DNA of 44,046 nucleotides, from the IMG/VR virus record IMGVR_UViG_3300037475_000059, positions 1 to 44,046 of that record, one strand, 5' to 3'. Both the position numbers and the translations under genes were made by a program. A model generated the notes under the pieces. The model had not been told where the DNA came from and did not search any database. It was given only the letters and a program-made list of their open reading frames with translations. The stretch is from a virus. This document shows positions 3,193-26,960 of the stretch, piece by piece; position 1 is the first letter of the stretch; each line of letters begins with the position of its first letter.

Positions 3193-3333
3193 ATGAAATA
3201 TAACTCTGAATTATATTACATAAGAAATTCTTACACGGGAGAAACACTGGAACAAACCAAAGCTCGGCTAGCAGAAAAACGCAGACAGCGATTAGACAAA
3301 ATTAAAAATAAAAGTTATACTAAAGAAAAATGA
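3193..3333 (+). CDS. Short basic hypothetical protein, 46 aa
   Basis: The frame runs from MKYNSELYYIRNSY to a lysine-rich end and overlaps the GT6 gene by 4 bp (ATGA). Residues 18-46 form a charged Arg/Lys/Glu helix. Its coupling to the glycan cluster makes it the likely first gene of that run. No family recognised. Confidence 0.5.
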   Translation: MKYNSELYYIRNSYTGETLEQTKARLAEKRRQRLDKIKNKSYTKEK

Positions 3334-4361
3334 ATCCTCAAGATTTCAAACGCCTCGCAAATAATTTTTATCTCTCAAAGGGAATTGATTATAGCATGGA
3401 ACGCGTAGGAGTAGATGCAGATTTAATAAACTATTTTAGTACGCATCAGGAAAATAAGAAATTTAAGGTAGCTTTCGTATTTATATGTCTTAATCCTCTT
3501 TACTGGCAGTATGCACCCGAAATGGTTTTAGGAGCGAGAGAATGTTTTTTACCAGGGCATAATACTGATTATTTCTTTTGGACTGATATACCAGAAAAAT
3601 CTAGTGAAATAAGAGAAAAAATGTCCAAGGCTTTTACCGAAAAAGGCATAGACTTAAATAGTGAAGTAAACGCTCAACACGCTAATATTTTAATGCAAAG
3701 TGTAGTGGATTTAAGAAAACAACCTAATATTCATATCATTCCCACAGAATCCGTAGATTGGCCATTTCCTACCCTTTTACGTTACAATCTTTTCTTACAA
3801 GAAGAAGCTAAACTCAAAGAATACGATTATATATTTTATCTAGATATAGACATGAAGTTCGTAAATATCGTAGGAGATGAAATTCTCGGGGAGGGAATAA
3901 CGGCTTCGGTGCATCCTGGTTACTATATAAAAAAGGAACTTTATCCTCCTTATGAACCTAATCCTAACTCTGCTTCTTATATCAAACGTCCAGGTAAGTT
4001 AATCAACGAAAATGGTAAACCAAGATTTCAACCCTTGTACTTTGCGGGTGGTTTTCAAGGTGGGCGTTCTAAGAAGTTTATCAAGGCCATGAAGGACTGT
4101 AAAAAGTTAATTGAAACTGACTTGAATAAAAGTTATATTCCAATTTGGAATGACGAAAGTGCTTGGAATAAATATCTATCCAAAAATCCGCCTGAAATAG
4201 TTCTTACTCCTTCCTATATTTATCCTGATAGTCTGATTAAGGAATATTATGTTCCCCAAGTCTGGGGTAGAGATTTTCCACCTAAAATAGTTACAATTAC
4301 AAAGTGGTTTACCATTAACAAAGAGGGTGGACAAGCCGTCGCCCAGATGATTAAACAATGA
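3330..4361 (+). CDS. GT6 family glycosyltransferase (ABO / alpha-1,3-Gal(NAc)-transferase type)
   Basis: The protein has 343 residues and carries the GT6 landmarks in order: metal-binding DID inside FYLDIDMKF (DxD at 172-174), HPGYY (195-199), NPNSASYI (211-218), YFAGGFQGG (237-245), NDESAWNKYL (274-283, with the Glu of the DES catalytic motif at 276) and VLTPSYIYPD (291-300). GT6 enzymes are retaining transferases that add Gal or GalNAc to a Gal acceptor, as in blood groups A and B. The donor-selecting triad reads Ala-Gly-Gly (239-241); Gly at the third position is the A-type (GalNAc) residue, but specificity is only a guess. No membrane segment is seen, so the enzyme is probably soluble. 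It opens the glycan cluster and overlaps the next gene. Confidence 0.93.
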   Translation: MNPQDFKRLANNFYLSKGIDYSMERVGVDADLINYFSTHQENKKFKVAFVFICLNPLYWQYAPEMVLGARECFLPGHNTDYFFWTDIPEKSSEIREKMSKAFTEKGIDLNSEVNAQHANILMQSVVDLRKQPNIHIIPTESVDWPFPTLLRYNLFLQEEAKLKEYDYIFYLDIDMKFVNIVGDEILGEGITASVHPGYYIKKELYPPYEPNPNSASYIKRPGKLINENGKPRFQPLYFAGGFQGGRSKKFIKAMKDCKKLIETDLNKSYIPIWNDESAWNKYLSKNPPEIVLTPSYIYPDSLIKEYYVPQVWGRDFPPKIVTITKWFTINKEGGQAVAQMIKQ

Positions 4362-5011
4362 TTTCAATAAGTATTTCCAGTTACAATCAAAGTGAATGGT
4401 TGAGAGATGCTATTGAAAGCGCGCTTGGTCAAAGTTCTGAAATAATTTGCGTAGATGATGGAAGTACGGACAATTCTTTAGAAATCGCTAGAAGTTATGA
4501 ACCACAAATTAAAGTTATTTCTCAAGTAAATAAAGGATTAAGTTCAGCTAGAAACACAGGAATTATGAATGCTATTGGAGACTATATTCTCTTCTTAGAT
4601 GCTGATGATATACTTATGCCGAATTGCATTGAAGTCATGGAACGAGTCATTAAAGAAACTAACGCTGATATAATAGCTCCATCTTTTAAGAATTTTGGAC
4701 TATATAATAATGAAGTTAATCTTACTCAATGTACCCATGCTGATTTTATGACAGCAAATAGAATAGGATATTTTTCGGCTATTCGTAAATCAAAGTTACT
4801 AGAAATTGGTGGTTATAGTCCGCGTATGACATTTGGTTTTGAAGACTACCACATTTGGCACAATCTATTATGCAGAGGGGCTACTTTACAAGTGCTTAAA
4901 GATATATTAGTATTATATAGAACCAAACCAAACTCTATGCTTACCACAGCAAACGAACACCAAGAGGAATTACTAAACCAAATTAACAAAGATTTCTATG
5001 CAAAATCCTAG
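4358..5011 (+). CDS. GT2 family glycosyltransferase (GT-A fold)
   Basis: The protein has 217 residues and a typical GT2 N-terminus: SISSYNQSEWL, then CVDDGSTDNS (31-40), NKGLSSARNTG (58-68) and FLDADD (79-84), the last holding the metal-binding DxD. A C-terminal FGFEDYHIWHNLL matches the ED base motif. This inverting enzyme probably acts on a lipid-linked or protein-linked glycan in the cytoplasm. It overlaps both neighbours, so it is likely co-translated with the GT6 and GT11 genes. Acceptor unknown. Confidence 0.93.
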   Translation: MISISISSYNQSEWLRDAIESALGQSSEIICVDDGSTDNSLEIARSYEPQIKVISQVNKGLSSARNTGIMNAIGDYILFLDADDILMPNCIEVMERVIKETNADIIAPSFKNFGLYNNEVNLTQCTHADFMTANRIGYFSAIRKSKLLEIGGYSPRMTFGFEDYHIWHNLLCRGATLQVLKDILVLYRTKPNSMLTTANEHQEELLNQINKDFYAKS

Positions 5012-5588
5012 GTCACTTTGGGGCGGGCTCGGTAATCGAATGTTTCAAATGGCATACATTTTCGCCAAAATGGCTGAAGGTGAATTGCCAGATATTTATT
5101 TGCAAGACCACAACTATTTTAAGAAATACAGTAAGGAGTTAAAAGAATTTTATGGTACAGGCATAATAAAAAGTGATTGTATATCTTTACACATAAGACG
5201 GGGTGATTATGTGAATAACCCAGTCTATGTAGATTTAACTCAAACTGATTATTACGATAAAGCTATCGCCGAATTTCCAGATGAGAAGTTTTTAGTTTTC
5301 TGTGCTGATAGGCAAGAAGGAAGTAATGATACAAAAGATAAAGTATGGGCGATGAATTTTTTAGAAAATAAGTTTGGGAATAGATTTGAATTATATATAG
5401 GCAAAGATGAAATAGAAGATTTTAACGCAATGGCTGGATGTAAATCTAATATATTAGCGAATAGTAGTTTTTCATGGTGGGCTGGATTTGTCAATCCAAA
5501 TCCTGATAAAAAAGTAATAGCTCCCCTCCAATGGTTTACTGATGGAATAGGTCGCGTAACTTTATTAGAGGAATGGATAAAATTATGA
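4998..5588 (+). CDS. GT11-type alpha-1,2-fucosyltransferase, compact form
   Basis: The protein has 196 residues and GT11 hallmarks: GGLGNRMFQMAY (9-20), the GDP-fucose-binding HIRRGDYV (65-72), FCADRQE, and NSSFSWWAGF near the C-terminus. GT11 enzymes transfer fucose from GDP-fucose to O-2 of galactose. The usual length is near 280-300 residues; the segment between GLGNRMFQ and the RRGDY motif is much shortened here, so it is either minimal or damaged. Placed after a GT6 gene it recalls blood-group H followed by A/B synthesis. No GDP-fucose synthesis pair is recognised, so donor supply would come from the host. Confidence 0.88.
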   Translation: MQNPRSLWGGLGNRMFQMAYIFAKMAEGELPDIYLQDHNYFKKYSKELKEFYGTGIIKSDCISLHIRRGDYVNNPVYVDLTQTDYYDKAIAEFPDEKFLVFCADRQEGSNDTKDKVWAMNFLENKFGNRFELYIGKDEIEDFNAMAGCKSNILANSSFSWWAGFVNPNPDKKVIAPLQWFTDGIGRVTLLEEWIKL

Positions 5589-6016
5589 AATCAGAAAAAA
5601 GTAAAATTAAAAATAGAGAGTATATGCGAAAATATAACTTAAAATATTATGCAAAAAATAAAGATGATGTTTTGGCTCGCAATAGAAAATATGCCAAAGA
5701 ACATCCTGAAATAATGGCAAAAGTTGCAAGAGATTATAGACAAAGATACCCTGATAGACAGAAAAATAGTCGCCTTAAATACAAGTATGGCATTTCATTA
5801 GAAGATTATCAAAAATTACTTGATTCTCAAAATGGGGTTTGTGCTATTTGTTGGGATAAAAATATTTACAAAAAAACTCTTGTAGTAGACCATTGTCATA
5901 CTTCCGATAAAGTTCGTGGACTTTTATGTGATAATTGCAATTTAGCGTTAGGATTAACAAAAGATAATCCTGAAATTTTATTAAGAGCTATTAAATATTT
6001 AAATAATTATCTATGA
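5585..6016 (+). CDS. HNH endonuclease, recombination endonuclease VII type
   Basis: The start at 5585 lies in a 4-bp overlap with the fucosyltransferase stop and is preferred over an in-frame ATG at 5573. About 143 residues: a Lys/Arg/Tyr-rich N-terminus with repeated RKY/YA motifs, then YGISLEDYQKLLDSQNG, CAICW, VVDHCHTSDKVRGLLCDNCN. This is the endonuclease VII/HNH zinc fold with Cys pairs and DHCH catalytic core. Such genes are free-standing homing endonucleases in phages. It splits the glycan cluster yet keeps the overlapping stop/start pattern, so it seems well settled. Confidence 0.92.
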   Translation: MKSEKSKIKNREYMRKYNLKYYAKNKDDVLARNRKYAKEHPEIMAKVARDYRQRYPDRQKNSRLKYKYGISLEDYQKLLDSQNGVCAICWDKNIYKKTLVVDHCHTSDKVRGLLCDNCNLALGLTKDNPEILLRAIKYLNNYL

Positions 6017-6987
6017 AAATTTTAATCACAGGGAGTCTGGGGCTTGTAGGCAGTGAAGCTATGAGTTTCTTTAAACAAAAAGGTTGGAATGTTATTGGCA
6101 TAGATAACAATATGCGGTCGTATTTATTTGGCGTGCGAGAAGATAATTTAGATACAAAAACTGACATACGTGACGAACAAGCTATTGAGGCTCTATTTTC
6201 TTTGCACAAATTCGACGCCATTCTTCATACGGCCGCCCAGCCTTCACACGACTATTCCAAAGACCACGTTTTAGAAGATTTTGATATAAACGCTCGAGGT
6301 ACTTTGATACTCTTAGAAGCTACTCGAAAATATTGTCCTAACGCAACCTTTGTTCATATTTCTACCGATAAAGTTTATGGAGAAAATATGAAACATATTG
6401 CTCTAGGAGAAGAGATAACTAGATATAATCGTAAAAATGGGGAGTTCAATGAATCTCTTTCGTTAGATAATACTACCCGTTCTCCATTTGGTTGTTCCAA
6501 AACCGCCGCCGATATTTACGTTCAAGAATACGGGAATTATTTTGGCATGAATACAGTTTGCTTCCGACTTGGTTGTATTACTGGCAAGAACCATAAAGGA
6601 GCCGAATTGCACGGCTTTATGTCTTATCTCGTGAAATGTATTAAGCAAGAAATCCCATATAAAATCTTTGGCTATAAAGGTAAACAAGTCCGCGACCAAA
6701 TTCACGCTTATGATTTAGTTACCGCTTGCTATGAATTTATTCAGAATCCCAAAAAAGGAGCGGTATATAACTTAGGCGGCGGGACAGAACGAAGTGTATC
6801 TATTTTAGAAGCGATTGGTTTAATAGAAAAAGAAACTGGCAAGAAAGCAATCACTAAGTACATTGACCAGCCACGAAAAGGAGATAGGATTTGGGACATT
6901 CACGATGTAAGTAAATTTAAAAAAAATTATCCAAATTGGGATTATAAATATAGTTTACAAGATATTATAAAAGATTTATGTCAATGA
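6013..6987 (+). CDS. CDP-paratose 2-epimerase-like SDR
   Basis: The 324-residue extended SDR has GSLGLVG (7-13) for NAD, HTAAQPSHDYSKD (72-84), HISTDKVYGE (115-124), SPFGCSKTAAD (157-167), GCITG, ELHGFMSYLVK (198-208) and GYKGKQVRDQIHAYDL (220-235). These are characteristic of the family annotated as CDP-paratose/tyvelose 2-epimerase (RfbE type). The YxxxK Tyr is Phe159 here; as I recall, some relatives share SPFG. The known enzyme epimerises C2 of CDP-paratose to CDP-tyvelose. The exact sugar is inferred. Overlaps both neighbours. Confidence 0.85.
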   Translation: MKILITGSLGLVGSEAMSFFKQKGWNVIGIDNNMRSYLFGVREDNLDTKTDIRDEQAIEALFSLHKFDAILHTAAQPSHDYSKDHVLEDFDINARGTLILLEATRKYCPNATFVHISTDKVYGENMKHIALGEEITRYNRKNGEFNESLSLDNTTRSPFGCSKTAADIYVQEYGNYFGMNTVCFRLGCITGKNHKGAELHGFMSYLVKCIKQEIPYKIFGYKGKQVRDQIHAYDLVTACYEFIQNPKKGAVYNLGGGTERSVSILEAIGLIEKETGKKAITKYIDQPRKGDRIWDIHDVSKFKKNYPNWDYKYSLQDIIKDLCQ

Positions 6988-7661
6988 TTATTACTGGTCA
7001 TAAGGGAAATATAGGTTCTCGGCTATATAAGTTTTTTCCTGATGCAATAGGTATTGATACTAAGGATGGACTCGACCTTCTTACTTGTGAACTTCCTCAA
7101 AATGTAAATATAATCTATCATTTAGCCGCCCACGCTCCTGTCGAAGATAGCTGGAAAGACCCCGTCAGAACTATGCAGAATCTATCTAACACGGTGCGGT
7201 TAGCTCACACTTATCCGAATGCTAAAATAATATTTGCGACAAGTGTAGCCTCAATAGACCCAGCTTCGCCGTATGGTTTTTCTAAATGGGCTTGCAACGA
7301 ATACCTTAAACGATTCCATAGTAACGCAGTGATACTCTATTTTACCAATATATTTGGAATCCCTAGAAGTGTGGTCGATATTTTTAAGGGAAAAGAGGAA
7401 GTAGTGATTTATGGCGATGGCGAGCAGACACGAGATTACGTTCATGTAGATGATATTGTGCGAGGATTAGTCAAAGCTAAAGATTGGGAAACTGGAGAAT
7501 ATTTTATGGGCAGTGGAGTGAAAACTAATTTACTTCAGTTAGCCGAAGGGAAGACAGTAATATTTAAACCAGCCCGTAAGGAGGCTAGAGAATCTAGTTT
7601 AGACAATACCACCCCAAATTGGGAGCCAATTATTAACGTAATGGATTACTTAAATGAGTAA
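6978..7661 (+). CDS. NAD-dependent sugar epimerase/reductase, short extended SDR
   Basis: The protein has 227 residues: GHKGNIG (7-13) binding NAD(P), YHLAA (47-51), ATSVAS, catalytic YGFSK (Tyr99, Lys103), and GEQTRDYVHVDDIVRGL typical of GalE-like sugar-nucleotide enzymes. It is shorter than the usual 310-340 residues, with a trimmed substrate domain. Next to the RfbE-like gene it could be the 4-ketoreductase step of a dideoxysugar pathway or a UDP-glucose 4-epimerase type. Substrate not determinable. Confidence 0.85.
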   Translation: MSMIITGHKGNIGSRLYKFFPDAIGIDTKDGLDLLTCELPQNVNIIYHLAAHAPVEDSWKDPVRTMQNLSNTVRLAHTYPNAKIIFATSVASIDPASPYGFSKWACNEYLKRFHSNAVILYFTNIFGIPRSVVDIFKGKEEVVIYGDGEQTRDYVHVDDIVRGLVKAKDWETGEYFMGSGVKTNLLQLAEGKTVIFKPARKEARESSLDNTTPNWEPIINVMDYLNE

Positions 7662-8301
7662 ATACATTTTTTTTGACATGGATGGTACACTCTGCGAAAG
7701 TAGGCAAAAAGCTACTTCGGAAATGTTAATTCATTTAAAGGCTTTGAATGAAAAAAAGAAAGTATTTATTGTTAGTGGAGCTGAACTTGCTCGAATGGAG
7801 TTACAATGTCCTATGAAGTATGTAACATATTTTTCGCAAAATGGAAATATTATTTATGATGGCGATAAGGAAATTAGACACAATGAATTGACTAATAAAG
7901 AAGAAATATTAAAGCATATTGATTTACTAAGAGCGGATTATCCTATCGCCGAAGTGGAAGATAGGGGTTCACAGATTACAGTATCATTTACAGGATTTAC
8001 CGCCCCTCAAGAGATAAAAAATTCATTTGACCCTGACCGAAAAATTAGATTAGAAATGTTAAAGAGGTATCCATTTCATAATGCTTTCGTGGCGGGGCTT
8101 ACTGGAATAGACTATATACCAAAAACTAAGGGCGAAAACATTCAACATTACTTGGAACTACGAAAAATAAAACCAGCAGATTGCATTTATATCGGAGATG
8201 CTTTGGAAAAAGGAGCGAATGATGAAACAGTGGTCGGTGTCATTCCAACTTTTGCAGTTAAGAATCCAGAAGATACTTTAAAATTTATAAAACAACTATG
8301 A
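7654..8301 (+). CDS. HAD-superfamily phosphatase, phosphomannomutase/Cof-like (HAD-IIB)
   Basis: The protein has 215 residues. FFDMDGTLCES (6-16) holds the nucleophile Asp8 and Asp10; FIVSGAEL matches motif II; KTKGENIQHYLEL provides the motif III Lys; YIGDALEKGANDETVVG supplies the motif IV acids. A cap domain lies between. The layout resembles eukaryote-type phosphomannomutase and sucrose-phosphatase-like proteins. In this cluster it could handle a hexose phosphate on the way to a nucleotide sugar. It overlaps the cytidylyltransferase gene by 4 bp. Confidence 0.85.
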   Translation: MSKYIFFDMDGTLCESRQKATSEMLIHLKALNEKKKVFIVSGAELARMELQCPMKYVTYFSQNGNIIYDGDKEIRHNELTNKEEILKHIDLLRADYPIAEVEDRGSQITVSFTGFTAPQEIKNSFDPDRKIRLEMLKRYPFHNAFVAGLTGIDYIPKTKGENIQHYLELRKIKPADCIYIGDALEKGANDETVVGVIPTFAVKNPEDTLKFIKQL

Positions 8302-8690
8302 TAAAAGGAATTGTTATGTCAGCGTTTGATTTATTGCATAGCGGACATATTGCTATGCTTGAAGAAGCTAGAAATCAATGTGATTATTTAATTGTAGGAT
8401 TACACACTGACCCGAGTGTCGAAAGAGATTTTAAAAATAAACCTGTGCAAACTTCTTTTGAGAGGTTTATTCAATTAAAAGGATGTAAGTTTGTAGATGA
8501 AATAATTCCATACGACACTGAAGAAGATGTAATAAATATGCTTCAAGTAGTTCAACCAGATGTTAGATTCATTGGAGAAGAATATCGAGGTAAGAATTAT
8601 ACAGGTAATGATTTACCAATAAAAATGATATATACAACCAGAAGACATAATTTTAGTACAACTAACTTACGAAAACGATGCCAAAAATAA
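8298..8690 (+). CDS. Small cytidylyltransferase-like nucleotidyltransferase (TagD/GCT type)
   Basis: The protein has 130 residues, the normal size of glycerol-3-phosphate cytidylyltransferase. It carries the HxGH motif (HSGH, 14-17) that binds the nucleotide phosphates, and FSTTNLRKR near the C-terminus in place of the RxxxISTT signature. Such enzymes make CDP-glycerol, CDP-ribitol or related donors and NDP-heptoses. Beside a phosphatase and a CDP-sugar-type epimerase it may activate a sugar or polyol phosphate. Substrate unknown. Confidence 0.88.
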   Translation: MIKGIVMSAFDLLHSGHIAMLEEARNQCDYLIVGLHTDPSVERDFKNKPVQTSFERFIQLKGCKFVDEIIPYDTEEDVINMLQVVQPDVRFIGEEYRGKNYTGNDLPIKMIYTTRRHNFSTTNLRKRCQK

Positions 8691-9256
8691 GTATATGTAT
8701 TCCTTCTCATAAAGAGATGAAAAATTATGATTTTTTCTTGAATCGTGCATTAGAAAGCATACGCTCTCAAACTTTTCAAGATTTTGAAATAGTAAATACA
8801 GAAAATGGGAAGGGAATGGCTTCCAATACTAATAGTGCTATCAAACAAGCTACAGGACTTTTAGTCAAAATTCTGTATATGGATGATTGGCTTTATCATA
8901 AAGATGTTTTGCAAAATATTTGGGACAATTTTGAATTTGGAGATGACTGGATGATTAGCGGAGCAACAACAAATCCACACCCTTACTGGACTGATGATAT
9001 TGAAACTGGAAATAATCATTTAGGTTCACCATCGGCATTAACTATGCGAAGAAAATCTGCTATGATGTTTGATGAAAGGATGTCTTGGCTTCTCGACTGT
9101 GATTTATATCGGAGACTTTATGATGAATATGGTCCACCCAAGTTTTTAGATAGTATAGAAATTGGGATTGGAGTTGGGGACCATCAAATGACACATATAC
9201 TAACAGATGAAGAAAAATTAAAAGAACATAAACTAATACAAAAGAAATATGCATAA
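8678..9256 (+). CDS. GT2-like glycosyltransferase
   Basis: The protein has 192 residues. ISICIPSHKEMKNYDFF (4-20), LESIRSQTFQDFEIVNTENG and KILYMDDWLYHKDVL match a GT-A/GT2 fold with MDD in the DxD place. The C-terminal WLLDCDLYRRLYDEYG resembles the ED/acceptor region. The gene overlaps the previous one by 13 bp and the next by 8 bp. Donor and acceptor unknown. Confidence 0.85.
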   Translation: MPKISICIPSHKEMKNYDFFLNRALESIRSQTFQDFEIVNTENGKGMASNTNSAIKQATGLLVKILYMDDWLYHKDVLQNIWDNFEFGDDWMISGATTNPHPYWTDDIETGNNHLGSPSALTMRRKSAMMFDERMSWLLDCDLYRRLYDEYGPPKFLDSIEIGIGVGDHQMTHILTDEEKLKEHKLIQKKYA

Positions 9257-10277
9257 AAGAGTATTATTAACAGGTATAGCAGGAAGTATCGGAATCCATA
9301 CTATGGCACATATTTTCCATAATACTGATTGGGAGATAGTAGGATTATCTAGTTTTCGACACAAAGGACTTGTGGACAGGATTGCTATTACATTACGAGA
9401 CCACCCAAGCTGGGCAACTCGTTTGACGATGGTTACTCAAGATATTTCTGCCCCAATTTCTTCGCTTACTAAAGAAAAAATAGGACACGTAGATTACATA
9501 ATAAATCTTGCCTCATTATCAGACGTGGAAGACAGTATCCAAAATCCAGCTTCATTTATTCAAAATAATGTTGCTCTCATGGTAAATATGTTAGAGTATG
9601 CGAGAGAAATAAAGCCAGAAAAATTTATTCAATTTTCTACGGATGAGGTATATGGTCCAACCACAGGGAAAGATAGTGGATATAAAGAGTGGTCAGCTCA
9701 AATACCAAGTAATCCCTATGCAGCGTCTAAGGCGTGCCAAGAAATGATTTGTATATCCTACTGGAGAACTTATAACGTTCCTATTATTATAACTAATACG
9801 ATGAATAATTTTGGAGAAATGCAACAACCTTTTAAATATCCAGTTATGATACAGAAGGCTATTGCTAATGGAGAAGAAATAACTATTCATGGAAATGAAA
9901 ATGGCGACATAGGTTCTCGTTCATACATTCATTCCCGAAATGCTTCTGACGCTCTTTTGTTTATCCTTAATCAGCCAGTTTATATGCATAAAGCTGGACA
10001 AGCGGACAGACCAGATAGATACAATATAGCTGGAGATAGACAACTCGATAATCTAGAATTAGCTCAAACTATTGCTAGACTTATGGGAAAAGAACTTAAA
10101 TATAAACTTACTAATTTCCACCAAACCAGACCAGGACATGACCCTCACTATGGATTAGATAATACGAAATTATCAGCAATGGGCTGGAAGTCGCCAGTAT
10201 CATTTGAAGATTCTTTAAGAGAAACTATTAAATGGCAAACGGAGAATCCGGAATGGATAAGTAAAAATCATATATGA
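9249..10277 (+). CDS. dTDP-glucose 4,6-dehydratase-like SDR (RmlB/RfbG type)
   Basis: The 342-residue extended SDR has GIAGSIG (9-15), NLASLSDVEDS (86-96), FSTDEVYG (129-136) with the Asp132-Glu133 pair that marks 4,6-dehydratases, YAASKA (157-162) and the family's C-terminal RPGHDPHYGLD and MGWKSPVSFEDSL. These enzymes turn an NDP-hexose into the 4-keto-6-deoxy sugar. It directly precedes, with a 4-bp overlap, an E1-like gene that normally takes that product. The nucleotide (dTDP, CDP or GDP) cannot be told. Confidence 0.9.
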   Translation: MHKRVLLTGIAGSIGIHTMAHIFHNTDWEIVGLSSFRHKGLVDRIAITLRDHPSWATRLTMVTQDISAPISSLTKEKIGHVDYIINLASLSDVEDSIQNPASFIQNNVALMVNMLEYAREIKPEKFIQFSTDEVYGPTTGKDSGYKEWSAQIPSNPYAASKACQEMICISYWRTYNVPIIITNTMNNFGEMQQPFKYPVMIQKAIANGEEITIHGNENGDIGSRSYIHSRNASDALLFILNQPVYMHKAGQADRPDRYNIAGDRQLDNLELAQTIARLMGKELKYKLTNFHQTRPGHDPHYGLDNTKLSAMGWKSPVSFEDSLRETIKWQTENPEWISKNHI

Positions 10278-11446
10278 GAGACTTAAGATATGGTGGTGCG
10301 TTAACGGGCGAAGCTGAAGTAAAAGCAATTATAAGGTCAGTTTTAAAGTCGAATGATACAGGCAACTGGCAAACAGGAGCCGAAGCTAAAAAACTCGAAG
10401 CCGAGGCGAGCAAATTCCTTGGCGTAAAATATGGAATACTTACAACCAGTGGTTCTTGTGCTTGTCTTCTTGCTCTTAACGCATTGGAGCTACCAATTAA
10501 CTCAGAAGTTATCATATCAGCCGTTACTTTTCCGACCGTTTTTAATAGTATTTTACAGTGCAATCTTGTGCCTCTTGTTGTCGATGCTAAAATTGGTACT
10601 TATAATTTTGATATTGACGAAGTAGAGCAAGCAATCATTAAAAGCAAAGGCAAAGTAAAAGCCGTAATCGCCGTTCATGCAGTGGGCAATCCTTGTGATA
10701 TGCCAAGACTAATGAAAGTGGCTAAAAAATATAATGTCAAAGTCATCGAAGATAACTGCGATGGTTGGGGGTCTACAATCAATGGACGAAAAGTCGGCAG
10801 TTTTGGAGATGTCTCAATTACTTCGTTCCACGCTGCGCACATTGTCAGCATGGGAGTTGGTGGAGGAGTATTTACCAATGATAAAAAAATTGCTGAAAAA
10901 GTCAGGGTTTACCGAGATTGGGGCAGACAAGCTGATACAACAAAGTCTCACAAATATAAAGAACTCCCGAAAGACTATAATCCAAGATTTATCTATGACA
11001 AAATAGGTTATAACTTTCAAATTCTAGAACTTCAGGCGGCTATGGGCAGAGTACAATTAAAGAAGTCTAATCAAGTAAAGAGACTAAGACAAAAGAATAC
11101 AGAATATATTTGTGATAATTTAATAGAAATAAAAGAATTGATATTGCCTGAATTAACAAGAATTGATGCAGATGTCTGTTGGTTTTCAATTCCTTTAACT
11201 ACTACGGGAGATAGAGGAAAGCTAGTTAAATACTTAGAAAGTAAAGGACTAGAAACACGCTCTATGTTCAGTGGAAATATTACCAAACACCCAGCTTATA
11301 AAGGTAGTAGATTTAAAGTTTTTGGAAAACTTAGGGAAGCTAATTATATTCTCAAACATTCATTCTGGATAACTTGTCATCCTAGGTTAAAGAAATCAGA
11401 TTTAGATTATATTATTAAGGTATTTAAAAATTACTATAAATGTTAG
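10274..11446 (+). CDS. RfbH/E1-like sugar 3-dehydratase (DegT/AHBA fold, His in place of the PLP lysine)
   Basis: The 390-residue PLP-fold protein resembles RfbH/E1 (CDP-6-deoxy-4-hexulose 3-dehydrase). VIEDNCDGWGS (157-167) holds the cofactor-pairing Asp; SFHAAHIVSMG (184-194) has His189 where aminotransferases have the Schiff-base Lys, the change that defines E1 and ColD dehydratases. YRDWGR (213-218), IGYNFQILELQAAMG (244-258), and a C-terminal TRSMFSGN follow RfbH. The Cys-rich [2Fe-2S] segment expected after DWGR is replaced by QADTTKSHKY, with no Cys. So it may work like ColD without iron-sulfur. Likely product: a 3,6-dideoxy-4-keto sugar (inference). Confidence 0.88.
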   Translation: MRDLRYGGALTGEAEVKAIIRSVLKSNDTGNWQTGAEAKKLEAEASKFLGVKYGILTTSGSCACLLALNALELPINSEVIISAVTFPTVFNSILQCNLVPLVVDAKIGTYNFDIDEVEQAIIKSKGKVKAVIAVHAVGNPCDMPRLMKVAKKYNVKVIEDNCDGWGSTINGRKVGSFGDVSITSFHAAHIVSMGVGGGVFTNDKKIAEKVRVYRDWGRQADTTKSHKYKELPKDYNPRFIYDKIGYNFQILELQAAMGRVQLKKSNQVKRLRQKNTEYICDNLIEIKELILPELTRIDADVCWFSIPLTTTGDRGKLVKYLESKGLETRSMFSGNITKHPAYKGSRFKVFGKLREANYILKHSFWITCHPRLKKSDLDYIIKVFKNYYKC

Positions 11447-12072
11447 AATTGCCGGACGTAACTCTAATTGCGCTAGGAAGTGTGAATGTCATTGGAATGG
11501 CTAATGCCTTAGAACACAGCGCGCGTAATATCAAGTGGGGTGCGATTAAACTCATTACTGAAATTCATTGCAATACAATAGATGAGTGGAACCATGCAAT
11601 TGTCTTTGATTTACGTAAATATGTGGACACTAAATTCTGTATGCTCATCCATCCTGACGGGTTCGTGGTGAATGCGGAAAGTTGGCGACCAGAATTCCTT
11701 GAATATGATTATATTGGGGCTCCATGGCCATTACCGAATGATGATTACTCCTATCGCACCCCTGATGGCGAGATAGTCCGTGTTGGTAATAGTGTATCTA
11801 TTCGCAGTAAGGAGATGTTGGAATTGCCCTACCAATTAGAACTAGCTTGGAAACCTTATTATGGGAATACTAATGAAGATGGTTTTCTTACGTGTCATAA
11901 TAGAAGACTCTTTCAACATTTCGGTGCAAGATATGCTCCGATTGAAATAGCCAAGTATTTTAGTCGAGAATTAGATTTGCCAGAAAACGCGGATGTAGAA
12001 AAACCTTTTGCTTTTCATTTACATGATACAAAAATAGGTCGCAATCAAGAATATAAACATTTAGTCAAATGA
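11440..12072 (+). CDS. DUF5672-like glycosyltransferase-associated protein
   Basis: The protein has 210 residues. FDLRKYVDTKFCMLIHPDGFV (about 66-86), PEFLEYDYIGAPWPLP (about 94-109), VGNSVSIRSKEML and ETNEDGF-type NTNEDGFLTCHN follow the DUF5672 pattern found in glycan loci and often fused to transferases. It is presumed to have a GT-A-like fold. It overlaps the dehydratase gene by 7 bp. Activity unproven in the family as far as I know. Confidence 0.75.
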   Translation: MLELPDVTLIALGSVNVIGMANALEHSARNIKWGAIKLITEIHCNTIDEWNHAIVFDLRKYVDTKFCMLIHPDGFVVNAESWRPEFLEYDYIGAPWPLPNDDYSYRTPDGEIVRVGNSVSIRSKEMLELPYQLELAWKPYYGNTNEDGFLTCHNRRLFQHFGARYAPIEIAKYFSRELDLPENADVEKPFAFHLHDTKIGRNQEYKHLVK

Positions 12073-12233
12073 ATATAATAGATTGGTATAAAAGAAAATA
12101 TCCTAAATGTGATTTCTGTGGTAAATCTTTATTTAGATTCGGCAACCCGTATGGAGGAACGGATGTAAAAATAACATCAAACACAAAGGTAACTGCTTAT
12201 CTATGTAATCTTTGTTATAAATTATTTTCATGA
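12069..12233 (+). CDS. Small zinc-ribbon protein inside the glycan cluster
   Basis: The 54-residue frame starts MNIIDWYKRKYPKCDFCGK and ends YLCNLCYKLFS. CDFC and CNLC make a four-Cys zinc ribbon. It overlaps the genes on both sides by 4-5 bp (ATGA patterns), good evidence for translation. Its role among the transferases is unknown; a nucleic-acid-binding regulator or a stray small gene is possible. Confidence 0.65.
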   Translation: MNIIDWYKRKYPKCDFCGKSLFRFGNPYGGTDVKITSNTKVTAYLCNLCYKLFS

Positions 12234-12991
12234 TATACGGTATTACACACCAAGGGTCGGGGCTAGCAAATCAATTGCACAGAATTATTGCAACAAGGAT
12301 TTTAGCTAAGAGATTAAATACTGACTTCTCTATTATTGCCCGAGATTTATTCAAGGGTAAAGATTTTATGAATGTAGATATGGGGGAGGAAAATTTACTA
12401 GCAACTGCCGTAGAATTTCCCAGTGGTAAGATTAAAGTATTAAATTCTGAATTACCTTTATGGGAAGAATGGGGTAAACATACTTATGACCCAGATTTTA
12501 ATTTCGTAGAAGATAATACTATTATAGATGGCAACTTTGAAGATGAAAGATATTTTGAAAATCACCTCGATAAAGTAGATGAATGGCTAAGGGTGAAAGA
12601 GTGGAATATACCTGACGATGTGTGTGTAATAGGTTTTCGAGGTGGCGAATACTACACTGTTCCCGAACTCGGTTTGCCTTTTCAGTGGTATTATGAAGCT
12701 ATGATAAAAATGGTCAAAGAAGTTAATCCTGAAATGAAATTTGAAGTGCATACTGATGACCCTATTTTAGCCAAACAATTTTTCCCCGATTTAAATATAA
12801 TTCACGATGTAGAATTAAACTGGCGAGCAATGCGATATGCTAAGTATGCTATTATTGCTAACTCTTCTTTCTATGTATTACCAAGAATTTTAAGTAAAGG
12901 GATAACGATTGCCCCCCGATATTGGAATAGATACAACACTAAGAAATGGGATTATCCTCAAGGATATTATAAAGAATTTCAATATATATGA
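12230..12991 (+). CDS. GT11-like fucosyltransferase-type protein
   Basis: The protein has 253 residues. HQGSGLANQLHRIIATRILA (7-26) matches the N-terminal nucleotide-sugar site of GT11 and related GT-B enzymes; GFRGGEYYTVP takes the place of HxRRGDY; FEVHTDDP and ANSSFYVLPRIL follow the C-terminal NSSFSWW region. The first Arg of RRGD is kept, the second is Gly, so it is a divergent member. Donor may be GDP-fucose. Overlaps both neighbours. Confidence 0.78.
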   Translation: MIYGITHQGSGLANQLHRIIATRILAKRLNTDFSIIARDLFKGKDFMNVDMGEENLLATAVEFPSGKIKVLNSELPLWEEWGKHTYDPDFNFVEDNTIIDGNFEDERYFENHLDKVDEWLRVKEWNIPDDVCVIGFRGGEYYTVPELGLPFQWYYEAMIKMVKEVNPEMKFEVHTDDPILAKQFFPDLNIIHDVELNWRAMRYAKYAIIANSSFYVLPRILSKGITIAPRYWNRYNTKKWDYPQGYYKEFQYI

Positions 12992-13644
12992 AATGGATAA
13001 TCTCGCGGTACAACCAAGATATAAGTTATCTTCCTGAATATACTTCAGACTATATTCTTTATGACCGAAGTGAAGCACCTTTACCCGAAGCGATTGTTGT
13101 ACCTAATATCGGTACTGATTTGCATGATAAGTTTACCTATATCATTGATAATTATGATAAATTACCTGATGTGGCGGTGTATACGAAAGCTAACCTTTTC
13201 AAATATGTGAGTAAAGAAGAATTTGATTTGGTGAAAGACAACACAACTTTTACACCCCTTTTAACTCAAAACCACGCTGAAGTTTTGTGTGATGTAAATC
13301 TCTGCCAGCAACTTGGCTTCACGCCCCCTAAATCTTTTTCTTTTTACAAAGACGGAATGTACTATGAACTTAATTATCCTTCGTATTTAAAACACCACGA
13401 TTTGCAGAATAAATACTATCAATATGCCGATACTTATGCACAATTTCCCTTGCTAAAAATCTTAGGAATTGGTAAAATGGAGTATGTCCCCTTCGCTCCA
13501 GGAAGCAATTATATTTTACCTAAAGAAAACATTTTGAAACATTCAAAAGAATTTTACGAAGAATTAAGGTCGTATTTAGCATGGGATAGATACCCTGGTG
13601 AAGCAATGTGCATCGAGCGCGCCTTGTATACTTTATGGCAATAA
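12988..13644 (+). CDS. DUF3431-like putative glycosyltransferase
   Basis: The protein has 218 residues. VVPNIGTDLHDKFTYIIDNYDKLPDVAVY (37-65) and the C-terminal FYEELRSYLAWDRYPGEAMCIERALYTLW fit the DUF3431 family, found in surface-glycan loci of bacteria and in fungi. The family probably has a transferase fold but the activity is not established. Overlaps the next gene by 10 bp. Confidence 0.75.
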   Translation: MKWIISRYNQDISYLPEYTSDYILYDRSEAPLPEAIVVPNIGTDLHDKFTYIIDNYDKLPDVAVYTKANLFKYVSKEEFDLVKDNTTFTPLLTQNHAEVLCDVNLCQQLGFTPPKSFSFYKDGMYYELNYPSYLKHHDLQNKYYQYADTYAQFPLLKILGIGKMEYVPFAPGSNYILPKENILKHSKEFYEELRSYLAWDRYPGEAMCIERALYTLWQ

Positions 13645-14396
13645 TTGATTGTTTTACGATTTTTAATGAGTTGGATATGCTTGAACTTCGGCTCGACATT
13701 TTAGGTGATTACGTAGACAAGTTTATTCTCGTAGAATCTCGCCAAACTTTTACAGGTCAAGAAAAACCTTTATATTACGAAGAAAACAAGGAACGCTTTG
13801 CTAAGTGGAATGATAAAATAATTCATATTATTGCACCAAATATAGAAATCAAACAAGTAGCCTACGAACGCCATTGGTTATGTTACGAACTCATAGAAGC
13901 AGAGTTGATGAAATTTAATATCGAGGATATTGCTTTCTGTTCGGATTTAGATGAAATATGGAATCCCGAAATACTTAAACAGGCTGATAATCAAGCACAT
14001 AGCTTAGCGCAAATTAACTACTCTTATTGGCTCAATTATCGCTCTAGCGAACAATGGATAGGAACAATCATGTCTCCAGTTGGTAACATGTTTATCGGAT
14101 TTAATAAAATGAATCGCACAGCTAAGCCAAACGTTCTTCAAAATGGTGGCTGGCATTTTACGAACATGGGTGGAGTAGAACAGATAATCAAAAAAGTACA
14201 GGCTTTTGACCATGGCCCAGAAATCCCACAAGAGTGGTTTCAGTCGCAGATTAAAGACAGAATGGAACGAGGAGAAGATTATTTAGCACGACAATTAGAT
14301 TGGCATGGCAAACCCTATGTCTTTACAGTCGAGGAAGAAAACTGGCCACAATGGCTTAAGGATAACAAAGAAAAATACACTTATTTATGCAAGTAA
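13635..14396 (+). CDS. GT17-like glycosyltransferase
   Basis: I place the start at ATG 13635 (MAIIDCFTIFNELDMLELRL), within the end of the previous gene; an in-frame GTG at 13608 would add nine unlikely residues. The protein (253 aa) follows family GT17: DKFILVESRQTFTGQEKPLYY (about 31-51), AFCSDLDEIWNPEIL with the DLDE metal site, and a GGWHFTNMGGVEQIIKK segment. GT17 includes the bisecting beta-1,4-GlcNAc transferase MGAT3. Phage members are known; donor here unproven. Confidence 0.88.
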   Translation: MAIIDCFTIFNELDMLELRLDILGDYVDKFILVESRQTFTGQEKPLYYEENKERFAKWNDKIIHIIAPNIEIKQVAYERHWLCYELIEAELMKFNIEDIAFCSDLDEIWNPEILKQADNQAHSLAQINYSYWLNYRSSEQWIGTIMSPVGNMFIGFNKMNRTAKPNVLQNGGWHFTNMGGVEQIIKKVQAFDHGPEIPQEWFQSQIKDRMERGEDYLARQLDWHGKPYVFTVEEENWPQWLKDNKEKYTYLCK

Positions 14397-15307
14397 TAAC
14401 TGGAAAAGGAATATCTGAAAAATGTGATTATTCATTCGGTGACCATCGAGGTTTATGGGATAAAGATTTACCTGGAGTATTCAGCAAGGAAGCTAATGCA
14501 CATAATACGGAGTTTTTGGAACAAGCAAAACAATTTGAAGGTAAAACAATGACTTTGTACATCGACAACATTCGACTTTATCCACGTCCATTACAAGTAG
14601 ACCGAGAAGAAGATAAGAATTTAGTTAACTATCTATTCTCTTTTAATAATCTTTTGGCTCTCTGCTCTTTAATGCCTCGTAATACTTTTGTAATCTATAC
14701 AGGAGAAGAAGATACACCGATAGATGAGTACATTCAAATTCCTCCGAACGTGAAACATATTTACGCTGTCAATGCAGTTTACAATAATGACAGAATCACC
14801 CCTATTCCTTTTGGGTTGCAACGCCAAATGAATCCTAATGATTATAGACTGGGAATTATTAAAGCGATGATTGATACTTCAAAAGAACCCACTAAACTTT
14901 TATATATAAATATGGGAATAGGTAGAAATATAGAACGTAAACCATTAGCCGAATATGAAACTAATGATTGGATTACTACTCGTTTTGATGCTGAAAGTAA
15001 ATTCTTTCCTTATGACCAATATGCTGATTTTTTAAATGAATTACGAGACCATAAATTCGTAGTGTGTCCGAAGGGTCATGGCTTCGACACTCATAGAATC
15101 TGGGAAACTTTATATATGCGCCGAGTCCCAGTTATGTTACGTCATCCATATTTTGAAATATTGCTTAAATCTTTTCCTGTTTTATTTGTAGATAAATGGC
15201 AAGATATAACAAAAGAATTACTGGAACAGAATGATGGTCTGTATCAGACAGCACAGACAATGAATCTCGACAATCTAGATTTGAACTGTATGATGAATCT
15301 GGGTTGA
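14387..15307 (+). CDS. Exostosin-like (GT47-type) glycosyltransferase
   Basis: The protein has 306 residues. FVVCPKGHGFDTHRIWETLYMRRVPVM (about 221-247) is the nucleotide-sugar binding core of exostosin-like enzymes; ITPIPFGLQ and DNIRLYPRP precede it. It ends the low-GC glycan run. Its last residues (NLDNLDLNCMMNLG) lie in sequence that merges into the GC-richer radical SAM island, so the original C-terminus may have been replaced at the recombination joint. Reaction unknown. Confidence 0.75.
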   Translation: MQVITGKGISEKCDYSFGDHRGLWDKDLPGVFSKEANAHNTEFLEQAKQFEGKTMTLYIDNIRLYPRPLQVDREEDKNLVNYLFSFNNLLALCSLMPRNTFVIYTGEEDTPIDEYIQIPPNVKHIYAVNAVYNNDRITPIPFGLQRQMNPNDYRLGIIKAMIDTSKEPTKLLYINMGIGRNIERKPLAEYETNDWITTRFDAESKFFPYDQYADFLNELRDHKFVVCPKGHGFDTHRIWETLYMRRVPVMLRHPYFEILLKSFPVLFVDKWQDITKELLEQNDGLYQTAQTMNLDNLDLNCMMNLG

Positions 15308-15328: not shown

Positions 15329-16894
15329 ATGAAGAGAATCACTTTGATTACTCCTCCATCAGTATTCTTACTTGATGAGAGAGTATTTCCTAGCCTCGGC
15401 ATTCTCAAAGTGGCTGCATCAATGGAGCAATCGGGGTGGACAGTTTCTCATCTCGACCTCTGTGGGTACAGCAACTACGGGAAAATCGTGGCTGAATACG
15501 CAAAACATGAGGAGTCGCCAATATTTGGATTAACAGCGACAACTCCACAACTGCCTGCCGCAATGGAAATTCTGGCAGCAATTCGCTCAGTTCGTGTCGA
15601 CGCCCGAGTAATTTTGGGTGGTCCGCATGTAACGTTGGTATACGCCGCTAAGCGTGTCGAAGTTAAACAGAATCGTCAGGGTCGTGCACATCGTGCGGCT
15701 CAACGGCTCGAAGAAAACTTTGATTGTCTGGTAACGGGCGATGGTGAACTGGCTATTTTCGAAGCCTGCAAACCGAACGCCCCAAAGGTTGTCGACGCTG
15801 ACGGTTTCAAGGACAATGGACTCATTTCTCCGTTGTACTTAACTCGTAAGCAACTGACAGAGGCAAGTCTGCCTGCTCGTCACCTCGTTGACCTCGAAAC
15901 ATACCACTACAACATCGAAGGAGTGAATGCTACCTCCATCGTCGCTCAACTTGGCTGTCCGTTCAACTGTGGATTCTGTGCGGGTCGTAACTCGCCTAGC
16001 CTGCGCAGTATTCGTACGAGAGATACTAACGCTGTTATCGAGGAGATGGTGCATCTGCACACTCACCACGGTATCAGAGGATTTATGTTCTCGGATGACG
16101 AACAGAACTTAGTCAACAAACAGTTCCTCGAGTTTCTCGAAGCAATTACGAGAAAGCAACGGGAACTCGGAACAGAATGGAGACTGCGTGGTTTCCTGAA
16201 GTCTCAGTTATTCAACGAAGACCAAGCGAAAGCGATGTACGAAGCGGGCTATCGAAAAATCCTCATTGGGTTCGAGTCAGGTGCGCCGCAGATTCTGGAG
16301 AATATTCAGAAGAAAGCTACGCAAGACGACAACACTCGGTGCATGGATATTGCGCGCAAAGCTGGACTCGAAGTGAAAGCTCTGATGTCTGTCGGACACC
16401 CTGGAGAATCTAAATGGACTATCGACGCAACTCGTCGCTGGCTTCTCGACGTCAAACCTCCAGATTTCGATGTGACTATCATCACGCCTTACCCTGGCTC
16501 GCCGTATTATGACGATGCCGTGCCAACAGGAGAATTGCACGAAGGTAAGGAAGTTTTCAAGTATACGTGCAAGAATACGACCAAAGGTTATGTCGAATGG
16601 GAAATCCCTGACGGCTTACCCGATGTGTTGTATCAGGTAGAACTTGACTACCGAACTGAGGTGGACTATTACAAGGGAGACCCGAATGCTCTTATTCTCT
16701 CCCACGTATGGACTGAATACCTCTCAGCTGAAGAAATCGTTCTCGCTCGTAATGCCGTAGAAAAGGAAGTTCGAGATAATCTCGGTCTTCCCTACTACCC
16801 GCGCGCCGAAGCGGTTGATTGTGCCACTATCAACTTTGACCATTCTATGGGGCAGACACCAATCTTGCCCTCGCGAATGTTCCGAGTATCTTAA
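15329..16894 (+). CDS. Radical SAM protein with B12-binding-like N-terminal domain
   Basis: The protein has 521 residues. Residues 1-150 resemble the Rossmann-like cobalamin-binding fold (PSLGILKVAA, ILGGPHVTLV, TGDGELAIFEA), though the DxHxxG cobalamin motif is not evident. C-PFN-C-GF-C at 210-217 is the CxxxCxxC [4Fe-4S] site; FSDDEQ, IGFESGAP and MSVGHPGES continue the TIM barrel. Such enzymes often methylate or rearrange unreactive carbons, including on sugars. A Shine-Dalgarno (AAGGGG) precedes the ATG, and base and codon use are GC-richer than all neighbours, indicating transfer from another genome. Confidence 0.9.
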   Translation: MKRITLITPPSVFLLDERVFPSLGILKVAASMEQSGWTVSHLDLCGYSNYGKIVAEYAKHEESPIFGLTATTPQLPAAMEILAAIRSVRVDARVILGGPHVTLVYAAKRVEVKQNRQGRAHRAAQRLEENFDCLVTGDGELAIFEACKPNAPKVVDADGFKDNGLISPLYLTRKQLTEASLPARHLVDLETYHYNIEGVNATSIVAQLGCPFNCGFCAGRNSPSLRSIRTRDTNAVIEEMVHLHTHHGIRGFMFSDDEQNLVNKQFLEFLEAITRKQRELGTEWRLRGFLKSQLFNEDQAKAMYEAGYRKILIGFESGAPQILENIQKKATQDDNTRCMDIARKAGLEVKALMSVGHPGESKWTIDATRRWLLDVKPPDFDVTIITPYPGSPYYDDAVPTGELHEGKEVFKYTCKNTTKGYVEWEIPDGLPDVLYQVELDYRTEVDYYKGDPNALILSHVWTEYLSAEEIVLARNAVEKEVRDNLGLPYYPRAEAVDCATINFDHSMGQTPILPSRMFRVS

Positions 16895-17126: not shown

Positions 17127-17322
17127 AGAAGAAAACAAATGGGATTACGAAGCCAAGGGTGCTGTGCAAATAGGTGAAGTAGCATTTCCATATAAAAATG
17201 ATGATGTAGATTTAAAAAAAGGTGATATTGTATATTTTCAAGATGATTATTCCCATAAACTCAATATTGATGGTAAGGAATTTATTAGCACTAATCCTAC
17301 AAACCTTATATGTCTAAAATAA
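17092..17322 (+). CDS. GroES-like co-chaperonin, short
   Basis: The protein has 76 residues, against about 97 for GroES. GAVQIGEVAF (23-32) and LKKGDIVYFQDDYSHKLNIDGKEFIS (41-66) follow the GroES barrel pattern of VGDxVLFxxYxGxxVxxDGxEYxIL. The N-terminal strand is shorter and the mobile loop that contacts GroEL is not obvious. The gene sits directly upstream of, and overlaps by 13 bp, a GroEL-like gene, as in bacterial groESL operons; that context raises confidence. Confidence 0.72.
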   Translation: MKAYKILLKVNKEENKWDYEAKGAVQIGEVAFPYKNDDVDLKKGDIVYFQDDYSHKLNIDGKEFISTNPTNLICLK

Positions 17323-19003: not shown

Positions 19004-19167
19004 GAAAAGAATGTTGCATATGTGGATACGATTGCAAAAAGAATTATACAAGAGACTTATTATTCGGCTGGTACTTATGTGAATGGTGTAAAGAAATAGG
19101 TTTTCAATATAATAAATATTTACCTTATAGAAAAACAATAATTTATGGAAGAAGAAAACGTTGCTAA
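18973..19167 (+). CDS. Small zinc-ribbon protein
   Basis: The protein has 64 residues. CCICGYDC near 14-21 and CEWC near 36-39 make a likely four-Cys zinc site; the tail is basic. It overlaps the TerS candidate by 23 bp. Role unknown. Confidence 0.6.
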   Translation: MEKIIPQTILRKECCICGYDCKKNYTRDLLFGWYLCEWCKEIGFQYNKYLPYRKTIIYGRRKRC

Positions 19168-19432
19168 CAACGGAGAAAACAAGCTCTTAGGAGGTATAAC
19201 TGGGAAAGGATTTATGCCAGGTAAGAGCGGCAATCCCAGTGGAAGACCAAAGGGTACGATGAAAGCCTATTTAGGTAAGAAGTTTATGGAAATGTCTGAT
19301 GCAGACAAAGAAGAATTCCTATTAAAACACGGTGTATCAGGTAAAGACCAAATAGAATTTGGGGAAGGTAAAGCTAAACAAGATGTAAATGTAGAAGGAG
19401 AAATAGAAATGTTAATTAAAATAGATGAGTGA
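19145..19432 (+). CDS. Terminase small subunit candidate (DUF5681-like N-terminus)
   Basis: The protein has 95 residues. GFMPGKSGNPSGRPKGT (22-38) is the signature found in short phage proteins encoded just before large terminases. It precedes TerL with an 8-bp overlap. The small subunit recognises phage DNA for packaging. Assignment rests on the motif and position, since small terminases are poorly conserved. Confidence 0.65.
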   Translation: MEEENVANNGENKLLGGITGKGFMPGKSGNPSGRPKGTMKAYLGKKFMEMSDADKEEFLLKHGVSGKDQIEFGEGKAKQDVNVEGEIEMLIKIDE

Positions 19433-26900: not shown

Positions 26901-26957
26901 CAATATAATTATTGTATTCTGTCAATACACCTCTCCTATGGGGTGTATGACACAGAA
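26901..26957 (+). promoter_or_regulatory. Palindrome and long hairpin between capsid and HNH genes
   Basis: CAATA/TATTG (26901-26914) is followed by a nested hairpin: TTCTGT (26917-26922) with ACAGAA (26952-26957) outside, ATACACC (26925-26931) with GGTGTAT (26942-26948) inside. No clear T-run follows. It may cap the capsid mRNA or reflect the landing site of the HNH gene. Confidence 0.5.
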
Positions 26958-26960
26958 AAT

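What the first reader, a model, noticed from the sequence alone, without database searches (positions are those of the whole stretch)
3330..15307. 12-kb phage-borne glycan biosynthesis cluster occupying more than a quarter of the genome
Nine transferase-type proteins (GT6, GT2 x2, GT11-like x2, GT17-like, exostosin-like, DUF5672-like, DUF3431-like) and six sugar-nucleotide enzymes lie in one + strand run with overlapping stops and starts. No phage replication genes are recognisable, so the phage spends more coding on sugars than on replication. It could recode the host surface (superinfection exclusion, release) or decorate the virion or DNA. The gene content is seen; the purpose is inferred.
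Basis: partly seen in the sequence, partly recalled or inferred. Interest (0 to 1): 0.9.

Follow-up and report, generated by a model that had tools for sequence, protein, structure and literature searches.

The report
Phage copy of host sugar-coat assembly line
A small uncultivated virus of bacteria, like the relatives that could be checked, spends a fifth to a quarter of its genome on a set of sugar-chain-building enzymes whose core has the same gene order as a surface-glycan locus of tiny uncultured Nomurabacteria, which suggests that it builds, alters or wears its host's sugar coat.

Summary
Window 3330-15307 is one + strand run of 16 genes: nine transferases, six sugar-nucleotide-type enzymes and a stray endonuclease VII. 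It is 27% of a circularly assembled 43.9-kb phage.

It is neither chimeric nor decaying. Viral loci with TerL at least 61% identical carry the cluster next to TerL wherever enough upstream sequence is held, seven of them near-complete genomes. Catalytic motifs are kept; dN/dS is 0.06-0.25. Outgroup phages (TerL 51-55%) lack it in the part read.

(1) The core GT2-DUF5672-GT11-DUF3431-GT17 has the same order in Candidatus Nomurabacteria chromosomes, beside an initiating transferase, Wzx flippase and Wzy_C; there neighbouring phage genes are fused in 21 ORFs. (2) The DegT slot switches between a His-type 3-dehydrase and a Lys-type aminotransferase at least four times, so the sugar donor is swapped while the transferases stay. 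(3) Similar clusters occur in other phages, including Synechococcus myoviruses.

Most likely the phage makes a host-type glycan with extra sugars of its own and feeds it into the host's lipid-linked export, recoding the infected cell's surface (0.46). Virion decoration is the close rival (0.36). DNA modification is unlikely. Acceptor and host are inferred, not shown.

The parts
3330..4361 (+). GT6 glycosyltransferase (ABO/BoGT6a family) with metal-type DxD motif (LDIDM)
   Evidence: Pfam PF03414 1.8e-22; NF041524 3.6e-44; PDB BoGT6a 2.6e-27; DxD kept in 10 of 10 phages; no hit in the Nomurabacteria loci
4358..5011 (+). GT2 glycosyltransferase (GT2a)
   Evidence: PF00535 9.1e-35; D[AS]DD motif kept in relatives
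4998..5588 (+). GT11-type (fucosyltransferase-like) transferase, GT11a
   Evidence: PF01531 1e-15; phrog_2644 1.9e-24
5573..6016 (+). Endonuclease VII, an insert in the operon, not a sugar enzyme
   Evidence: PF02945 7.6e-25; not found at this place in the mapped relatives, some of which have HNH inserts
6013..6987 (+). CDP-tyvelose 2-epimerase (RfbE)-like SDR
   Evidence: Best PDB 9rl0/1orr CDP-tyvelose 2-epimerase 1.2e-39
6978..7661 (+). Short NAD(P)-dependent SDR (reductase/epimerase) with YxxxK
   Evidence: PF01370 5e-17; PDB epimerases; conserved in some relatives
7654..8301 (+). HAD-IIB phosphatase
   Evidence: TIGR01484 1.1e-13, above cut-off; only here and in the closest relative G016
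8298..8690 (+). TagD/HldE-type nucleotidyltransferase
   Evidence: PF01467 1.4e-15; TIGR02199 and TIGR01518 below cut-off
8678..9256 (+). GT2-type transferase GT2b, core gene shared with Nomurabacteria
   Evidence: PF00535 1.2e-5; hits in CPR loci
9249..10277 (+). NDP-hexose 4,6-dehydratase-like SDR
   Evidence: TIGR01181 1.7e-57, below equivalog cut-off; PDB 6bi4 3.2e-43
10274..11446 (+). DegT-fold PLP/PMP 3-dehydrase with His for the catalytic Lys (SFHAAH); no cysteines in the stretch aligned to the Cys-rich part of RfbH
   Evidence: PRK15407 RfbH 4.5e-96, below cut-off; PDB 3bcx/3bb8 4.6e-70, ColD-type 2.1e-39; His-type in 17 and Lys-type in 5 of the phages on the TerL tree
11440..12072 (+). 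DUF5672 GT-A glycosyltransferase, core
   Evidence: PF18922 1.9e-11; AF2 pLDDT 89; VIA Z 12.5, rmsd 3.6, 180 aligned to PBCV-1 capsid-glycan transferase 2p72, tied with other GT-A
12230..12991 (+). GT11-like transferase GT11b, core
   Evidence: phrog_2644 1.8e-7; alignment A2; Nomurabacteria hits
12988..13644 (+). DUF3431 putative transferase, core
   Evidence: PF11913 1.5e-7; AF2 pLDDT 86; GT-A-like only weakly, Z 8.1; fused to GT17, GT47 or GT11b in CPR
13608..14396 (+). GT17 transferase, core (true start probably ATG at 13635)
   Evidence: PF04724 3.4e-24; DxDE motif in all phages aligned
14387..15307 (+). Exostosin (GT47)/RXYLT1-like transferase, accessory
   Evidence: PF03016 1.5e-4, PF24785 2.3e-4, both below cut-off; orthologues at 52-62% in several relatives
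15329..16894 (+). B12-binding radical SAM enzyme just downstream, possibly part of the pathway
   Evidence: PF04055 4.5e-21, PF02310 1.8e-12; 74% homologue only in the closest relative; GC 46% and deviant codon use

Best explanation
The cluster is a phage-encoded glycan assembly line of the kind that Nomurabacteria use for a surface glycan. Sugar-nucleotide genes make an unusual donor: in this phage probably an NDP-3,6-dideoxyhexose, in others an aminosugar. Soluble transferases then build an oligosaccharide in a fixed order. The phage cluster lacks the initiating phosphoglycosyltransferase, flippase and ligase/polymerase. The likeliest route is that its enzymes take over the host's lipid-linked intermediate and the host's own Wzx and Wzy export it, so that the infected cell shows a phage-specified glycan with phage-only sugars (GT6). 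That would stop re-adsorption of progeny and superinfection. Shown: gene content, clade-wide conservation, purifying selection, same order and fusions in Nomurabacteria, donor swapping. Inferred: acceptor, timing, host and benefit.
For: Same gene order GT2b-DegT-DUF5672-GT11b-DUF3431-GT17 in Nomurabacteria chromosomes; the GT11b gene is in 17 of 147 genomes of one family, 7 of 297 of the order, and 1 of 380 of the phylum, the centre itself. Neighbouring phage core genes are fused in 21 ORFs of these loci, none in phages (Pfam check). The cellular locus has Bac_transf, Wzx, Wzy_C; cluster proteins of the window have no predicted membrane segment. GT17 alleles of phages and CPR interleave. The donor slot switches at least 4 times on the TerL tree, no more clustered than shuffled labels. 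dN/dS 0.06-0.25. Outgroup without cluster.
Against: The cluster lies on the strand of and next to TerL and the structural genes, which fits late expression better than early surface conversion. A capping enzyme alone would be enough to change a host glycan, yet the phage re-encodes the whole core. No host link by prophage or binned contig. Other phages, including Synechococcus phages, carry the module, so it is not tied to Nomurabacteria alone.
Confidence: 0.46

Rival explanations
1. Autonomous virion glycosylation: the soluble transferases build the oligosaccharide directly on capsid, tail or fibre proteins in the cytoplasm, as chloroviruses do, giving a host-like coat on the particle.
For: No membrane or lipid step in the phage cluster; same strand and directly before TerL and the structural genes in the sixteen phages mapped. 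Transferase core always kept while donors vary, as in chlorovirus capsid glycans with conserved core (PMC7826918). DUF5672 model is best matched by a PBCV-1 capsid-glycan transferase, Z 12.5, tied with others. GT6 is absent from the CPR loci.
Against: The closest cellular counterpart sits in a Wzx/Wzy-type locus. No initiating protein transferase or acceptor protein could be named. Operon position is not proof of late expression.
Confidence: 0.36
2. Host-fitness genes: the phage strengthens or changes the surface glycan that an episymbiotic host uses to adhere to its own host, as proposed for nucleotide-sugar genes of Patescibacteriota phages.
For: PMC12911398 reports rmlB, rmlD, gmd and rmd in such phages and proposes this.
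Against: No lysogeny gene was recognised in the proteins scanned, and no clade member was found in genomes or bins; a lytic phage gains little.
Confidence: 0.09
3. Glycosylation of phage DNA bases.
For: Phage transferases that modify DNA are known (cited in PMC12619734).
Against: No base hydroxymethylase found in the proteins scanned; the transferase families are those of glycan synthesis and are arranged as in a surface-glycan locus.
Confidence: 0.04
4. Functionless filler for headful packaging, the alternative left open for cyanophage LPS clusters in 2010 (PMC3037559).
For: Large clusters vary in donor content.
Against: dN/dS 0.06-0.25, kept motifs, present in every clade member with enough sequence.
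Confidence: 0.02

Closest known systems
LPS/glycan gene clusters of T4-like cyanophages (P-SSM2, S-SSM7, S-SM2 in PMC3037559; here RN05-S and S-H68)
   Same: One-strand phage cluster of transferases and sugar-nucleotide genes; GT17, GT11b, RfbH-type, DUF5672 and GT2b homologues lie together in RN05-S.
   Different: There part of genomes of about 200 kb and sporadic; here 20-27% of genomes of about 40-44 kb, in all clade members seen, with GT6 and next to TerL. The phages are unrelated by TerL.
Nomurabacteria Wzx/Wzy-type surface glycan locus
   Same: Same order of GT2b, DegT, DUF5672, GT11b, DUF3431, GT17, sometimes GT47.
   Different: The chromosomal version has initiating transferase, flippase and Wzy_C, and fused multidomain transferases; it lacks GT6.
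Chlorovirus PBCV-1 capsid glycosylation (A064R, A111/114R)
   Same: Virus-encoded transferases with conserved core and variable parts; DUF5672 shares the GT-A fold of the PBCV-1 enzyme 2p72.
   Different: Acceptor protein proven there, unknown here; sequence identity in the structural match is 9%.
Phage O-antigen conversion (GtrABC)
   Same: Phage genes changing a surface glycan, if the best explanation is right.
   Different: No GtrA flippase or membrane GtrB/Gtr; a whole chain is encoded rather than one branch sugar.

Membership tests
Phage-borne LPS/glycan biosynthesis cluster (cyanophage type) | Run of transferase and nucleotide-sugar genes inside a phage genome | tested here: met
Phage-borne LPS/glycan biosynthesis cluster (cyanophage type) | Shared homologous genes with cyanophage clusters | tested here: met
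   GT17 27-28% over 97%; GT11b, RfbH, DUF5672, GT2b in L056
Phage-borne LPS/glycan biosynthesis cluster (cyanophage type) | Carried by a T4-like myovirus of cyanobacteria | tested here: not met
   44-kb phage with unrelated TerL and MCP
Wzx/Wzy-dependent glycan locus | Initiating phosphoglycosyltransferase, Wzx flippase, Wzy/ligase | tested here: not met
   Found in CPR locus L113, no such membrane protein in the phage cluster
Wzx/Wzy-dependent glycan locus | Cytoplasmic transferases and donor genes in order | tested here: met
GtrABC seroconversion cassette | Membrane proteins GtrA, GtrB, Gtr | tested here: not met
   No membrane segments in window cluster proteins; only GT2a has partial GtrB-like PHROG matches
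Autonomous virion glycosylation | Glycan on virion proteins | not testable with these tools
   needs mass spectrometry
Autonomous virion glycosylation | Soluble virus-encoded transferases and donor enzymes | tested here: met
RfbH/E1 CDP-4-keto-6-deoxyglucose 3-dehydrase | His replaces the PLP-binding Lys | tested here: met
   SFHAAH
RfbH/E1 CDP-4-keto-6-deoxyglucose 3-dehydrase | [2Fe-2S] cysteines | tested here: not met
   The Cys-rich stretch of 3bcx has no cysteines in the aligned phage region; which Cys bind iron is from memory
DNA-hypermodifying transferase system | Enzyme making a hydroxylated base as acceptor | tested here: inconclusive
   None found in the proteins scanned; short ORFs not all scanned
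Bacterial GT6 | NxN in place of DxD | tested here: not met
   DxD in all ten; the aligned region of BoGT6a reads NAN

The most novel reading that the evidence does not exclude
A lineage of small phages of ultra-small Nomurabacteria has captured the host's glycan assembly line as an obligate part of its virion operon and coats its particles with a host-type heteroglycan capped by phage-only sugars, with donor cassettes swapped like serotypes: autonomous, chlorovirus-style virion glycosylation in a 44-kb bacteriophage.
Probability: 0.2. Interest if true: 0.88.

Novelty: new variant of a known kind. Interest (0 to 1): 0.72.

Why it matters
Large glycan clusters in cyanophages have been known since 2010, with the open question whether they work or are filler (PMC3037559). 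This clade bears on that question: in a genome with little room the cluster is present throughout, selected, ordered and mirrored by a cellular locus. It also gives a possible host for an uncultivated phage lineage, points to DUF5672 as a GT-A transferase, and predicts the order of steps of a glycan pathway in Candidate Phyla Radiation bacteria through natural gene fusions.

Tried and rejected
Chimeric assembly: rejected, same order in independent circular contigs. End repeat as true terminal redundancy: rejected as assembler overlap. B12 radical SAM as unique oddity: rejected, 74% homologue in the closest relative. Host by TerL in GTDB genomes: nothing, only remote single hits in the Nomurabacteria order and family (L145 has no other clade gene). 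Megablast against INPHARED: none. Isolate relatives by TerL or MCP: only partial matches of about 30% identity or less. DUF3431 fold: only weak GT-A-like matches. Promoter and terminator scans: no more than shuffles. dN/dS between window and closest relative: dS mostly saturated, so a closer pair was used. PHROGs on the second phage group's large ORFs: no structural names. Phage and CPR RfbE/SDR counts rest on broad profiles and were not used for claims.
Full report
What is there. The window is an IMG/VR virus record whose ends repeat for 127 bp. Relatives from other samples show 127, 121, 121 and 42 bp; the first values look like assembler word lengths, so the contig is read as a circular assembly of 43,919 bp. 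The run 3330-15307 covers 27.3% of it. It holds GT6, GT2, GT11, endonuclease VII, an RfbE-like epimerase, a short SDR, a HAD-IIB phosphatase, a nucleotidyltransferase, a second GT2, a 4,6-dehydratase, a DegT-fold dehydrase, DUF5672, a second GT11-like protein, DUF3431, GT17 and an exostosin-like protein. Fourteen of fifteen junctions overlap.

It is real phage DNA and selected. A TerL search gave 53 viral loci, nearly all 66-78% identical; a profile search widened this. Wherever the contig reaches far enough upstream of TerL, loci with TerL at 61% or more carry the cluster on the same strand. Seven near-complete genomes of 40-43.5 kb were read in full; from the map, the span from first to last transferase is about 20-27% of each (simple arithmetic). 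Outgroup phages with TerL 51-55% and related portal and capsid proteins show no cluster gene in up to 7 kb upstream, so the cluster probably came in at the base of the clade. Catalytic motifs are kept. For the pair L019/G018 dN/dS of transferase and donor genes is 0.06-0.25, against 0.086 for TerL and 0.079 for the capsid protein (dS is 1-2.3, so the values are rough).

A cellular counterpart. A profile of the second GT11-like protein, run over 84,980 GTDB species genomes, found 18 loci. Fourteen records are named Candidatus Nomurabacteria, two are other CPR bacteria (Parcubacteria, Kerfeldbacteria), one is an unnamed bacterium that falls in the same family and one is a Polynucleobacter MAG. 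The scan needs exact seed patterns and will miss divergent copies. Most of these loci have all or part of the phage order GT2b-DegT-DUF5672-GT11b-DUF3431-GT17. Twenty-one ORFs fuse neighbours: GT2b+DUF5672, DUF5672+GT11b, GT11b+DUF3431, DUF3431+GT17, GT11b+DUF3431+GT17 and more; no phage ORF does (four fusions confirmed with Pfam). Locus L113 also has an initiating sugar transferase, a Wzx-type flippase and a Wzy_C protein. Prevalence falls from 17 of 147 in the family to 7 of 297 in the order and 1 of 380 in the phylum.

Evolution. On the GT11b tree phage and CPR proteins are separate groups; on the GT17 tree the phages need several changes, and the GT17 of the window lies in a mixed set with CPR L123, which also has GT47. 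So the module was probably shared long ago, with later exchange of the GT17/GT47 part. The trees are unrooted, quick searches, and direction is not shown. The DegT slot is His-type in 17 and Lys-type in 5 phages and changes five times on the TerL tree, four of them forced by well-supported branches, as scattered as shuffled labels. The CPR DegT genes are Lys-type except L112. HNH endonucleases sit in and near the cluster of several phages and may help swapping; this is inference.

Chemistry. The His-type enzyme is nearest to RfbH, the 3-dehydrase of 3,6-dideoxyhexose synthesis, but lacks the cysteines of the aligned RfbH region, so it may work as ColD does, without an iron-sulphur partner (from general knowledge). 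With a 4,6-dehydratase and a tyvelose-epimerase-like SDR an NDP-3,6-dideoxyhexose is likely; the nucleotide is not known and no hexose-1-phosphate nucleotidyltransferase of the RfbF/RmlA type was seen. The Lys-type of G008 is nearest to sugar aminotransferases. GT6 has DxD, unlike BoGT6a. DUF5672 is a GT-A fold protein; DUF3431 is only weakly so but is fused to known transferases in CPR.

Function. Two acceptors remain. For the host surface: the only cellular counterpart found builds, by its membrane genes, a lipid-linked exported glycan and supplies the steps that the phage cluster lacks. For the virion: no membrane step, position before the structural genes, core always kept, and the chlorovirus parallel. 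I put 0.46 on the first and 0.36 on the second. Nomurabacteria as host is likely but unproven, since no clade member was found in any genome bin and the module also occurs in other phage groups and in Synechococcus phages.

Known or new. Cyanophage LPS clusters are the nearest known kind (PMC3037559), and nucleotide-sugar genes have been reported in Patescibacteriota phages (PMC12911398). In the open-access papers searched I found no report of this clade, its clade-wide cluster or the fused Nomurabacteria locus; most subscription papers are not held. Hence a new variant of a known kind.

Noticed in passing
17310-18848: GroEL-type chaperonin (phrog_5725 9.5e-90) between the glycan cluster and TerL; present at this place in about half of the mapped relatives; no GroES recognised.
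   Followed up: partly
15329-16894: B12-binding radical SAM enzyme, GC 46% in a window of lower GC and deviant codon use; 74% homologue at the same place in the closest relative only.
   Followed up: partly
5573-6016, 26943-27449, 42358-43093: Endonuclease VII, HNH, LAGLIDADG and NinG-like nucleases; related HNH genes sit at varying places inside the clusters of relatives (L047 has several).
   Followed up: partly
1-127 and 43920-44046: Exact 127-bp end repeat; relatives have 127, 121, 121 and 42 bp, so it looks like assembler overlap.
   Followed up: yes
L171, L172, L184, L185, L168, L199: Viral contigs without this TerL in the part read carry GT11a-GT2b-(DegT-DUF5672)-GT11b-DUF3431-GT17-GT2a in the same order without GT6: perhaps a second phage group.
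   Followed up: partly
L125: MAG named Polynucleobacter sp. GWA2_45_21 has a CPR-type GT11b+GT17 fusion; the only one of 200 Burkholderiaceae genomes, so transfer or mis-binning.
   Followed up: partly
L056 (12001-17275): Synechococcus phage RN05-S (206 kb) has GT17, GT11b, RfbH-type, DUF5672 and GT2b homologues close together, annotated partly as hypothetical.
   Followed up: partly
1687-2316: DNA methyltransferase (phrog_24333 1.7e-45) ahead of the cluster.
   Followed up: no
19145-19432: DUF5681 protein before TerL, possibly the small terminase subunit.
   Followed up: no
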